NCBI GenBank assembly: GCA_021397835.1
Contig: JAJFZO010000028.1
Coordinates: 1,842,001 to 1,906,000, forward strand
DNA: 64,000 bases
From: Moringa oleifera
Taxonomy: Eukaryota > Streptophyta > Magnoliopsida > Brassicales > Moringaceae
Reading direction: 5' to 3'
Shown here: positions 6,300-14,745 of the stretch, piece after piece
Position numbering within the stretch: the stretch's first letter is position 1
How the letters are laid out: each line of letters begins with the position of its first letter
The notes under the pieces: generated by a model
Seen by the model: the letters and a program-made list of their open reading frames with translations, nothing else
Told to the model about the DNA's origin: nothing
Database searches by the model: none
Translations under genes and position numbers: made by a program

Positions 6300-6472
6300 T
6301 TTTCCAGTTAAGAAAAAATATAGTAGACTAACTGATGTAAATATTAGTTAATGAAAGAGCCCAATGCAAAAAAATGCATGTTGGGTCTTTGAAAGAGATC
6401 GAATCATTTTGATAATAATTAGTTCGATATCTTTTATCAAGAAGATCTACAGCTCGAATCTGTATAGCCCTA
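6300..6472 (+). pseudogene. trnV-UAC: trnV-UAC 3' half (intron end plus 3' exon)
   Basis: The 3' exon of plastid tRNA-Val(UAC) lies at 6,438-6,472. It includes the variable region, a T-arm altered from GGTTCGA to AGCTCGA, and the acceptor strand ending ATAGCCCTA. About 135 bases of the 3' part of its group II intron lie upstream, containing the short inverted repeat around ATGCATGTTGGGTC. The 5' exon is not here but at 14,246, at the other end of the insertion, so the gene is split. Confidence 0.85.
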
Positions 6473-7716
6473 TATTATTTTATTATTTATTTATAAATTA
6501 TAAATATAATATTATTTATATTATAAATAAACAAGATTATAAATTAAATAAATATTATTATAAATACTATTCAAATACAAAAAATTATGTAGTTTTTTTC
6601 CTCATTATTGTATTCTTTCTTATTCGTAACAAGTCCCTTTCGCTTGCTTAGTTCATCGAAATAAAAGCATTCCCATAAGCTTGCTCATACGGGGTTCGTT
6701 TAGAGCAAAACTGAAAACAAAAGTGCATTTCATTTTAATGGATCCAATCACTATATATCTCTTTCTAATCTCAGATCAACCAAAACAAAGCAATTTTTCT
6801 TCATTAATCTTCGTAGGTGGATTGATTATATATGAATTTTTCTCTTTTACTCAATCAAAGAGTTAGTGATACTTCCTTTTTTTTTTTTTATACCCACCAA
6901 ATCTTGTTGAATTTGTGAATTCAAAATTATGACGTAAACCCGGTTAAAGATAAAAACTTTAACCTAACTTAACTCCAATCGAATCTAATAGTATGCCACA
7001 TAGATCTATGAAGGCCTTACTGTATTTGTGGACACGTTAAAGTTTGAAAAACGAAGAGATTTTCATAAAAAAATTTCATAAACATAACATAAATAACATA
7101 ATATTTTATTTTTATAATATAAATATAAATAATAAAAAATTTATTTATTATTTAATAATTTTAAAATTAAAATTAAAACTAATTGATATTAAAATAATAT
7201 TATTAATATAAAAAACAATATTATTAATATAATAATAAAATAAATAAAAATCAATATAATAATAAAATAAATAAAATAAAAATAATGAAAATAGATTAAA
7301 AAATAATATTCAAAATAGAAAAAGAAATTGATTTACAATTTCTAATTTTAATTTAAAATTTTTTAATTTCTAATACTCTAAAACATATTAGGATTTAAAA
7401 AAAGAGAATTCTATTTAGTTTAGAATTTTCACCGTATTTTATCATTTTATTTAGAAAAATATGAAGCGAGGTGAAAGCGAGAAAGTTTGATTTGTTTTGT
7501 ATAAGAGAAATCTATATTTATTTATATTATATCGAATTCTATATCGAAAAATAAGTGTAATGGAAATAAAATAAGATTCCGATCAATAAATTTTAAAATG
7601 AGACATGTACCATAGCAAATTTTTATTGTGACTAAAAGGTTATGTATGACTTGACAATCAATTTTAATTTGAACTGACTAATCCAGTATATTTTTCACAT
7701 TCAAAGAAGTTCGTCT
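6473..7716. other. Plastid trnV-ndhC spacer copy
   Basis: Very AT-rich sequence (7,080-7,400 is almost pure A/T) in the position of the plastid trnV-ndhC intergenic region. No gene is supported here. The open frames at 6,364-6,651 and 6,681-6,866 look like chance runs without recognisable protein similarity. Confidence 0.6.
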
Positions 7717-8078
7717 ATGTTTCTGCTTTACGTATATGATATTTCTGGGCATTTCTAATAATATCAAGTGCTATTCTTATTTTGGCATTTCTAATTTTCA
7801 GAGTTTTAGCTCCAACTAGCAAAGGTCTAGAGAAACTATCTAGTTATGAATCGGGTATAAAACCAATGGGCGATGCTTGGTTACAATTTCGAATTCGTTA
7901 TTATATGTTTACTCTAGTTTTTGTTGTTTTTGATGTTGAAACAGTTTTTCTTTATCCATGGGCAATGAGTCTCGATGTATTAGGGATATCTATTTTTATA
8001 GAAGCTTTCATTTTTTTGCTTATCCTAATTATTGATTCAGTTTATGCGTGGCAAAAAAGAGCATTGGAATGGTCTTAG
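7717..8078 (+). pseudogene. ndhC: ndhC (NDH complex subunit 3), one frameshift
   Basis: Copy of the gene for NDH subunit C, a small membrane protein of the thylakoid NADH dehydrogenase-like complex. It starts at ATG 7,717 (MFLLYVYDI) and ends with WQKRALEWS and a stop at 8,076-8,078. The length is 362 bases against the usual 363. A single-base deletion near 7,745 shifts the frame after codon 9. Downstream the frame stays open and keeps SSYESGIKPMGDAWLQFRIR and VFDVETVFLYPWAMS. It overlaps ndhK by 10 bases, as in plastid DNA. It is the least damaged gene of the insertion together with atpE. Confidence 0.93.
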
Positions 8079-8394
8079 TTCCTGAATATTCAGACAATAA
8101 CAATAAAAAGAGAAAGTTAAAAAAACATAAGAATATTGAGACAATTGTGAATTTCATTGATTTTATCTTAGTTGATCGAACAACCCAAAATTTAGTTATT
8201 TCAACTATATTAAATGATCTTTCAAATTGGTCAAGACTTTCAAGTTTATGGCTGCTTTTTTATGGTACCAATTGTTGCTTCATTGAATTTACCTTATTAA
8301 TAGGCTCACGATTCGACTTTGATCATTATGGATTGGTACCAAAATCGAGTCTTAGACAGGTGGACCTAATTTTAACACCTGGCACTGTAACTAT
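8069..8394 (+). pseudogene. ndhK: ndhK 5' part, fused to inverted accD
   Basis: The first ~108 codons of the NDH subunit K gene, an Fe-S subunit. They start at MVLVPEYSDN, with LSNWSRLSSLW, SRFDFDHYGLVP and LILTPGTVT recognisable. The cluster-binding CCFIEF stretch is present as NCCFIEFTLLIG. Homology stops at about 8,390, where the sequence becomes the reverse complement of accD. The open frame continuing to 8,605 is therefore an accidental ndhK/anti-accD fusion. Confidence 0.9.
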
Positions 8395-8928
8395 AAATGT
8401 AACTGTCATTGTAATTGTCACCACCACTAAAAATGTAACTATCAATACAGATTTGAGAACGAAGGTAAGAGTCAATGCAACTATTAACGTGATTATTCCA
8501 ACTATATTTAATATCATGCATGTAAGGATCATGGTGGGGATTATTACTTATAGATCTATTATTCATATAACTATAATCACGATAACTATAAAAAAAACTT
8601 TCTAGTTCACTCAAAAAAGAATGATTATTGTCTATCTCAAAATTTTGATTTTTAATATCAACATATATAGAATAACTATCCCTAACAAAAAAGTTATCAT
8701 CCGACATGAATTCTGAATGTCCTTAGCACCGAATAAATGATCAACATTACTGTAATAACTAGAACTCACACCCCAACCATGAATGTTTTTATCCGTGTCA
8801 TTTATAACCGGGTCTTCACTTATACTAGTATTTCCAATAGGACAAAGACTATCCATTGATTTACTTAGCCCACATCTGTATTCTAATTGTCCCTTAGACA
8901 ACATCGAGTTGAACCACGATTTTTCCAT
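8388..8928 (-). pseudogene. accD: accD 5' part (acetyl-CoA carboxylase beta subunit)
   Basis: N-terminal region of the plastid acetyl-CoA carboxylase carboxyltransferase beta subunit. It starts at ATG 8,928 (MEKSWFNSML), then LEYRCGLSKSMDSL, SEDPVINDTDKNIHGW, SELESFFYSYRD and NSCIDSYLRSQICIDSYI. A frameshift lies near 8,700, so it is read in two frames. It is truncated at ~8,388 inside the poorly conserved N-terminal extension, so the catalytic domain is absent. rbcL follows upstream on the same strand, as in the plastid. Confidence 0.9.
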
Positions 8929-13362: not shown

Positions 13363-13760
13363 CCTCAAATCTTTGTGTACTGACTCCTAACCAAATTTTT
13401 TGGGATTCAAAAGTAAAAGAAATCATTTTATCTACTAATAGTGGACAAATTGGCGTATTACCAAATCATGTGCCTATTGCTACAGTTGTAGACATAGGTG
13501 TTTTGAGAATACGCCTTAATGACCAATGGTTAACAATGTCTCTGATAGGTGGTTTTGCTAGAATAGGTAATAATGAAATCACCATTTTAGTAAATGATGT
13601 AGAGAAGAGCAGGGACATTGATCCACAAGAAGCTTAGCAAACTCTTGAAATAAGGGAAGCTAATTTAAGGAAAGCTGAAGGTAAGAGACAAATAATTGAG
13701 GCAAATCTAGCTCTCAGACGAGCTCAGACACAAGTTGAGGCTATCAATGTGATTTTATAA
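13359..13760 (+). pseudogene. atpE: atpE (ATP synthase CF1 epsilon), one stop
   Basis: Copy of the gene for the epsilon subunit, which regulates the chloroplast ATP synthase. The start is at 13,359, overlapping the atpB stop, and the end is EAINVIL with TAA at 13,758-13,760. The length of 402 bases equals the normal gene, and the frame is preserved throughout. The only clear lesion is a CAA-to-TAG type stop at 13,635-13,637 after DIDPQEA, followed by QTLEIREANLRKAEGK and RQIIEANLALRRA in the same frame. The product would lack the C-terminal helical domain. Confidence 0.95.
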
Positions 13761-13996
13761 CTAGTTGGTACGCCCAAATAATCAAAAGAACTTTTGTATA
13801 AAATCAACATAAGTTCTATTTATAGACCTCATTTAAATTTTTTGCCACTTCAATACAATCAAGTGAAATCAGATTCTGATATAAGAAAAAAATTAAAAAT
13901 AAAAATAAGATGGAAAAGATACAAAATCAATAAAAGAAAAAGAAGGTGGGTAGAAAAACTTATTAGACACCGTGGTCAATGGTATCTAGTAAGTTA

Positions 13997-14069
13997 TACC
14001 TGCTATTGGATTTGAACAAATGACTCCCGCAGTATGAAAGCAATACTCTAACCACTAAGTTAAGTAGGC
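13997..14069 (-). pseudogene. trnM-CAU: trnM-CAU (plastid elongator tRNA-Met) copy
   Basis: A 73-base sequence on the minus strand beginning GCCTACT and ending AGCAGGTA. Its anticodon loop is CTTTCATAC and its T-loop is TTCAAAT. Its place between atpE and trnV, and its orientation opposite to them, match the plastid map. The first acceptor pair and one stem pair look mismatched. I regard it as a decayed copy, although the fold may still form. Confidence 0.85.
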
Positions 14070-14245
14070 CATTTATCATCGTAAAAGGAAACAAAAGGAC
14101 ACCTATCACATCAATGGATTATAAATCTAATATTACTTATAAGCAATACCAATCAAATAGATCAAGGAGATATGATGTTGGATCATGTCATAGACGAGAA
14201 ATTATATACATAATATGATAAGATAAAATGTGTATCATAAACATA

Positions 14246-14745
14246 AGGGCTATAGCTTAGTTAAGTGAAGCACCTCGTTTACACGCATGCCAATGTGTTT
14301 CAGAGGAAGGCTAAGATAGTGCCTCGCATATGGGTAGTTAGAGGGCGCTTATGCCCCGATGATAGGGCCTTATGGGGAAAGGCTCAGCCTAATAGGGACA
14401 GCACACCCCCTACTTTAAGCACACTTTTGTATCAACTGAATCACTCTAAGGGTCTAGTCGGTGGAACCGGTGAACCACGCGAGCTAGTTAGATGCGTGGG
14501 GCAGAGGGCTCATAGTACCCCTTTTTCTTGATCCAGCCTTTTCTTCACTTCGGTAGTGAATCACCTACTAAAAAAAGAGGCTGGCCTGCATGCCCTATTT
14601 GAGACTACTATGGTGGGTGGTGGACTCTTTGATTAGGGAAGGGAAGAAGACGCCTAAGCACGGCGGATGCCGTACATTTAAGTGGCAAAGGAAAGCAAGA
14701 TCATACTTCTTTTTTTTAGGCCTCTTTGGACATATGGTTACCTAA
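14246..14745 (+). pseudogene. trnV-UAC: trnV-UAC 5' half (5' exon plus most of intron)
   Basis: The 5' exon of plastid tRNA-Val(UAC) lies at 14,246-14,284, from AGGGCTATAGC to CTCGTTTACAC. About 460 bases of group II intron follow, GC-richer than its surroundings, with stretches such as AGGGCGCTTATGCCCCGATG. The matching 3' end of the intron and the 3' exon sit at 6,300-6,472. Together the two intron pieces make about 600 bases, close to the usual length. The open frame at 14,265-14,531 is intron sequence and not a gene. Confidence 0.85.

What the first reader, a model, noticed from the sequence alone, without database searches (positions are those of the whole stretch)
6300..14745. Circularly permuted plastid fragment in nuclear DNA
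In plastid genomes the order accD-rbcL-atpB-atpE-trnM-trnV-ndhC-ndhK is continuous. Here the piece starts inside the trnV intron, runs through ndhC to ndhK, jumps to accD, and returns through rbcL and atpB to the first part of the same trnV intron. The two intron pieces add up to about 600 bases, the usual size of this intron. So a single ~8.4 kb fragment appears to have been joined end to end (ndhK to accD) and opened inside trnV. This suggests a circular intermediate before nuclear integration. The alternative is that one fragment broke in the intron and its halves were ligated in swapped order.
Basis: partly seen in the sequence, partly recalled or inferred. Interest (0 to 1): 0.8.

Follow-up and report, generated by a model that had tools for sequence, protein, structure and literature searches.

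The report
Scrambled chloroplast-mitochondrial DNA insertion in Moringa
This stretch of Moringa nuclear DNA is an old patchwork of chloroplast pieces plus a mitochondrial scrap stitched end to end, a known kind of organelle-to-nucleus insertion, and the special evidence offered for a circular intermediate does not hold up.

Summary
The gene order is real: 3' trnV-ndhC-ndhK (6,307 to ~8,390) abuts accD-rbcL-atpB-atpE-trnM-5' trnV (~8,390 to 14,307). The decisive claim fails. Only 23 nt of trnV intron lie on the right and 131 nt on the left; four intact copies in the same genome have 451-453 bp more between the two ends. The piece from 14,308 to ~14,742, read as intron, is mitochondrial nad5 intron. 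Contig sizes identify the Moringa oleifera var. Bhagya assembly, a species known for massive plastid insertions. The element is a plastid-mitochondrial mosaic ('numin'): rpoC1-rpoB | psaB-psaA | trnV-ndhC-ndhK | accD...trnV | nad5 intron | nuclear DNA, with 3-4 bp shared at three of the joins. Among scored matches the ndhK|accD join occurs only here and in a second copy 69 kb upstream, so it is a nuclear product, not plastid gene order. Fragments keep plastid map order, the last two each inverted, which fits breakage and end joining of one plastid stretch. A circle opened with a 452-bp loss has the same topology and is not excluded, but nothing requires it. New member of a known kind.

The parts
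1..1860 (-). Plastid fragment A: rpoC1 (N-terminal part) and the 3' end of rpoB. It continues 1.5 kb left of the window to C572:1840500, where it joins another plastid-type piece (Z, gene not identified).
   Evidence: Of 40 scored places (94 candidates) only the window and copy 2 match past 1860; the others end at or before 1860. rpoC1; rpoB. Left join.
1861..6303 (-). Plastid fragment B: end of psaB, psaB, psaA (psaA 5' end at right)
   Evidence: psaB and psaA/psaB matches. Other copies match from 1861 and on the right stop at 6294 or 6303.
6304..6306 (.). Join J1, psaA | trnV intron (3 nt of uncertain origin)
   Evidence: Spanned by 1 of 40 scored places of 75 candidates, the window itself; masked in copy 2. 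Base-level view.
6307..8390 (+). Plastid fragment C: last 131 nt of the trnV-UAC intron, trnV 3' exon (~6438-6472, limits recalled), ndhC, first part of ndhK
   Evidence: ndhC and ndhK. Intact copies continue left into 451-453 bp more intron.
8386..8397 (.). Join J2, ndhK | accD; GTAA shared by both source sequences (4 bp), inside 12 bp of imperfect similarity
   Evidence: among scored matches present only here and at C572:1780927-1781327.
8390..14307 (.). Plastid fragment D: accD(-), rbcL(-), atpB(+), atpE(+), trnM(-) 13997-14069, trnV 5' exon (+) ending ~14284, then 23 nt of its intron
   Evidence: Collinear with C563 over 8386-14307 at 87%.
14308..14742 (+).
   Evidence: 80-86% match to three other places, plus three short matches of ~62 bp. 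One of the three (L034) has ORFs on both sides that match plant Nad5 residues 17-80 and 75-156 (further Nad5 ORFs).
14743..19929 (.). AT-rich nuclear flank, absent from copy 2 (which lacks window 13062-19929)
   Evidence: GC 13.8% at 15-16 kb.

Best explanation
It is a decayed complex NUPT with a NUMT at its edge (a plastid-mitochondrial mosaic, or 'numin') in the nuclear genome of Moringa oleifera, put together by end joining (0.82). Most likely within that (0.45): one stretch of the plastid large single-copy region broke into pieces, and at least four of them, plus a scrap of mitochondrial nad5 intron, were joined at short microhomologies before or during insertion at a nuclear break. The 8.5-kb accD-to-ndhK stretch lost ~452 bp at a break in the trnV intron, and its two halves were joined by their outer ends (ndhK to accD). 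Later the block was duplicated 69 kb away on the same contig. Shown: the fragments, the joins, the missing 452 bp, the mitochondrial identity, the second copy, and that both copies hold A|B and ndhK|accD. Inferred: single-molecule origin, end-joining mechanism, and timing relative to insertion.
For: The join is not plastid order. 451-453 bp of intron are missing. E is nad5 intron. At least three further joins lie in the same chain: Z|A, A|B, psaA|trnV. Shared bases are CCT at A|B, GTAA at ndhK|accD and GGA at trnV|nad5. Sampled points of B, C and D lie in map order and at matching spacing in one other contig, C534 53.5-75.0 kb. Copy 2 shares A|B and ndhK|accD. Such mosaics and shuffled clusters are described in plants and in Moringa (PMC6215612 passages; PMC7037861 passages; PMC10789010 section 7).
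Against: The order of events cannot be read from the final structure, so join-then-break (a circle) gives the same product. The facing ends lie only 452 bp apart on the map, with a chance of about 0.28% per adjacent pair for unrelated fragments. The psaA|trnV join shows no clear microhomology and could not be checked in copy 2, where 5 kb is masked. No Moringa plastid or mitochondrial reference was on hand; other nuclear copies served as proxies. The place of A on the plastid map relative to B is recalled.
Confidence: 0.82

Rival explanations
1. Circular intermediate (a sub-case of the mosaic): the 8.5-kb accD-ndhK stretch first closed end to end (ndhK to accD), then opened in the trnV intron with loss of ~452 bp, and was built into the mosaic.
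For: The topology is right; the two open ends lie within 452 bp of each other on the plastid map; the closing join has 4 bp shared by both sources.
Against: No clean restoration: three quarters of the intron is gone. Neither of the two places that hold the join shows an intact intron (copy 2 partly masked). The fragment sits in a chain with other joins, including one to mitochondrial DNA, so a special step is not needed.
Confidence: 0.12
2. Independent fragments (also a sub-case of the mosaic): C and D are unrelated plastid fragments joined by chance; the nearness of their ends is coincidence.
For: The chance is 0.28% per pair, but with the published 880 NUPTs in 282 clusters (598 adjacent pairs, in another assembly) about 1.7 such cases are expected genome-wide. 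Three other accD copies break within about 10 bp of this accD break and 4 of 40 scored trnV copies are cut within a 701-bp stretch around the intron, so ends may not be random.
Against: Within this chain alone the chance is about 1% for four adjacencies. The identified plastid fragments follow map order (A's place recalled).
Confidence: 0.25
3. A single collinear NUPT inserted first and was rearranged afterwards in the nucleus by two deletions and two small inversions.
For: Map order A-B-C-D is preserved, with C and D each inverted in place. Copy 2 shows that large later deletions happen here.
Against: It needs at least four separate nuclear events before an early duplication: 21 shared changes of 1,677 sites against 77 and 83 private ones (atpB, with three proxies, gave 40 shared, 75 and 83 private of 1,217). 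The mitochondrial scrap at the edge favours joining at insertion.
Confidence: 0.17
4. The plastid genome of this species naturally has ndhK next to accD.
For: None found.
Against: C563 has both blocks in normal order and ndhK reads on past the break there. 37 of 40 scored accD copies run through the break. The join is in 2 of 40 scored places.
Confidence: 0.01

Closest known systems
Nuclear mosaic insertions of plastid and mitochondrial DNA ('numins'; Portugez et al. 2018, PMC6215612; abstract and passages seen)
   Same: Plastid and mitochondrial fragments abut in the nucleus; fragments from different places and orientations; microhomology within the 1-7 bp given there (3-4 bp at three joins here).
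   Different: Here two plastid fragments happen to be map neighbours joined by their outer ends, and the block is duplicated 69 kb away.
Shuffled NUPT clusters of episode II in Moringa oleifera (Marczuk-Rojas et al. 2024, PMC10789010; abstract, Results part 1, section 7 and passages seen)
   Same: Same species; clusters not collinear with the plastid genome; identity peak 93.1% there, about 91-94% to the proxy majority base here.
   Different: What was read treats clusters statistically and does not describe this locus or circular intermediates.
Rearranged and mosaic NUPT/NUMT patterns (review, PMC7037861; passages seen)
   Same: Patterns (b), rearranged pieces of one organelle genome, and (c), plastid-mitochondrial mosaics, describe this locus.
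   Different: No difference in kind.

Membership tests
NUPT | Plastid-derived sequence in a nuclear contig | tested here: met
   C572 is 4.7 Mb; plastid genes are broken into short ORFs; repeats found elsewhere on nuclear contigs lie at its right.
Complex NUPT | Several non-contiguous plastid fragments joined at one locus | tested here: met
   Joins at ~1860, 6303/6307 and ~8390, and at C572:1840500.
Numin (plastid-mitochondrial mosaic) | A mitochondrial fragment adjoining a plastid fragment | tested here: met
   nad5 intron piece at 14308-14742 abuts trnV.
Numin (plastid-mitochondrial mosaic) | Blunt or short-microhomology joins | tested here: met
   3, 4 and 3 bp at three joins, about 7 bp at Z|A; the psaA|trnV join is ambiguous.
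Circularly permuted insertion from a circular intermediate | Joining the two ends restores the source without a large gap or overlap | tested here: not met
   Gap of 451-453 bp in four proxies.
Circularly permuted insertion from a circular intermediate | Closing join also present with an intact opening site, or in tandem multimers | tested here: inconclusive
   Only two scored places hold the join. The window lacks the intact intron; copy 2 is masked on one side and deleted on the other.
Plastid genome isomer | Same junction in most plastid-derived copies | tested here: not met
   2 of 40 scored.

The most novel reading that the evidence does not exclude
A small plastid-derived circle (8.5 kb, closed ndhK-to-accD at a 4-bp microhomology) existed before nuclear insertion and was opened in the trnV intron with a 452-bp loss while being stitched into a plastid-mitochondrial concatemer.
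Probability: 0.12. Interest if true: 0.5.

Novelty: new member of a known kind. Interest (0 to 1): 0.2.

Why it matters
It is a clear worked example of how organelle DNA enters plant chromosomes as stitched fragments, with an early duplication that dates the joins. Its main use is corrective: the apparent full-length intron that suggested a circle is a look-alike made with an intron of the other organelle.

Tried and rejected
Rejected: 14308-14745 as trnV intron. It does not align with the intron of the six other copies in that alignment, and it matches a nad5 intron. Rejected: the 12-bp overlap of BLAST coordinates at ndhK|accD as true microhomology; base-level alignment leaves GTAA plus imperfect similarity. 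Rejected: an element inserted into an otherwise whole trnV intron, because the rest of the intron does not follow within the 174 kb examined, apart from a 38-bp weak match and a masked 5 kb. Not supported: the trnV intron as a marked break hotspot. 36 of 40 scored copies (50 candidates) match a 701-bp query across it over all or nearly all its length; 4 are cut (starts at 88, 116 and 223, an end at 627), two of these inside the intron. The list favours long matches, so cut copies may be undercounted.

Led nowhere: Rfam at its curated cut-offs found only trnM in the window and nothing in the three nad5-like loci. The two accD pieces of the window matched nothing in Pfam or NCBIfam, and the one tested against solved structures gave only E 0.16 to an unrelated chain; accD was named through an intact copy, L020. 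L036 ORFs were uninformative. Literature searches for circular plastid intermediates listed no title or abstract start on circularised NUPT precursors; one paper on rice circular DNA reports 0.64% of its circles from NUPTs (PMC12050283, passages). Passages of PMC11110229 and PMC12181080 did not bear on the circle.

Weak points of my own tests: the atpB part used only three proxies, two of them from one contig, and gave more shared changes (40 of 1,217 sites) than the two better-sampled parts (21 of 1,677), on which I rest; 81 and 3 sites with disagreeing proxies were dropped. In one search C563 alone served as proxy for 8400-11750, and that part was dropped because C563's own changes look like shared ones. 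Independent C-to-T changes at the same site may inflate shared changes.

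Full report
Where it is. The window is C572:1842001-1906000 of a 279.5-Mb, 669-contig genome. C572 is 4,719,167 bp and C563 is 13,807,473 bp; these are exactly the N50 and the longest contig of the published Moringa oleifera var. Bhagya assembly (PMC8712769, passages; that paper gives 915 contigs and 281.9 Mb, so the copy held here is slightly smaller). [quoted passage not shown] Many copies of the region exist in this genome (40 places scored of 54 candidates) and served as plastid proxies, since no plastid reference was on hand.

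What is in the finding. In seven of seven other copies fetched, window 13.3-14.3 kb is followed by more trnV intron and then by 6.3-8.4 kb. C563 carries accD-rbcL-atpB-atpE-trnM-trnV-ndhC-ndhK in normal order, and ndhK reads on past the break there. So the window's order is a real rearrangement. Among scored matches the ndhK|accD join is found only in the window and at C572:1780927-1781327, 69 kb upstream at 90% identity (40 of 87 candidates scored, a 131-bp query, 40 of 83 scored). It is therefore a nuclear product, not plastid gene order.

Why the circle argument fails. Plastid similarity stops at 14,307, 23 nt into the intron (exon limits recalled), and resumes at 6,307, 131 nt before the 3' exon. 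Between these points C563, C522b, L008 and L004 have 452, 451, 453 and 451 bp. That stretch is not in the surrounding 174 kb except for a 38-bp weak match (5 kb is masked). The 14,308-14,742 piece instead matches three other places at 80-86%, and three more over about 62 bp. One of the three, L034, has on either side ORFs matching plant mitochondrial Nad5 residues 17-80 and 75-156, with further Nad5 ORFs beyond. This places the piece in the intron between them (the first nad5 intron, numbering recalled). Two organelle introns thus met at 14,307, and their lengths happened to add up.

The wider chain. Reading left to right: plastid-type piece Z | A (rpoC1-rpoB) | B (psaB-psaA) | C (trnV 3'-ndhC-ndhK) | D (accD...trnV 5') | E (nad5 intron) | AT-rich nuclear DNA. 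At base level the joins share CCT (A|B), GTAA (C|D) and GGA (D|E); Z|A shares about 7 bp; B|C has 3 nt of uncertain origin. On the plastid map the pieces stand in the order A, B, C, D. A before B is the recalled standard order; sampled points of B, C and D lie in that order and at matching spacing in contig C534 between 53.5 and 75.0 kb. In the window that order is kept, with C and D each inverted. 'Circular permutation' and 'two neighbours each flipped' describe the same arrangement.

The second copy. C572:1771230-1788639 matches C572:1840500-1864879 in the same orientation. It holds A|B and C|D. The region of B|C is masked (1775001-1780000), but the lengths agree to 11 bp over 5 kb. On its left it runs on past the Z|A point as an intact plastid copy does, with rpoC2, rps2, atpI, atpH and atpA ORFs following (gene names from Pfam domains and recalled order), so the Z|A join belongs to the window's copy only. 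On its right, window 13062-19929 is missing. Against proxies, the two copies share 21 changes of 1,677 sites and have 77 and 83 private ones in the two well-sampled parts; atpB, with three proxies, gave 40 shared, 75 and 83 private of 1,217. The join thus existed before a fairly early duplication.

Chance. For unrelated fragments of a 160.6-kb plastid genome (size from PMC10789010), two neighbours whose outer ends face each other within 453 bp are expected in 0.28% of pairs, about 1.1% for four joins. With the published 880 NUPTs in 282 clusters this makes about 1.7 cases genome-wide. That argues mildly for a shared source molecule, and not for a circle over a break with swapped ligation.

Verdict. 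A complex plastid-mitochondrial mosaic insertion of a described kind (PMC6215612 passages; PMC7037861 passages). Its order is best explained by breakage and end joining of one plastid stretch. A circle opened with loss is not excluded.

Noticed in passing
C572:1771230-1788639 and C572:1840500-1864879 (window up to 22879): The mosaic is part of a direct segmental duplication 69 kb apart. One copy has lost 6.9 kb; the other is joined on its left to another plastid-type piece at a ~7-bp microhomology.
   Followed up: yes
L023 (C612:102729-103138), C534:74609-75018, C58:38727-39121: Three accD copies break about 10 bp from the accD break of this finding; in L023 the neighbour looks like ycf1 (recalled, not tested). 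A possible recurrent break site in accD, or one event duplicated.
   Followed up: partly
window 19930-22879: Repeat also found elsewhere on contig C572 (for example 2278566, 2600594, 2903276) and on C11, mostly at 81-97% identity; it abuts plastid DNA directly in copy 2.
   Followed up: no
L034 (C585:125000-134999) and L036 (C519:1779000-1788999): Two places share 6.4 kb of DNA around nad5 at 79% identity; the first keeps several nad5 ORFs open, the second does not.
   Followed up: no
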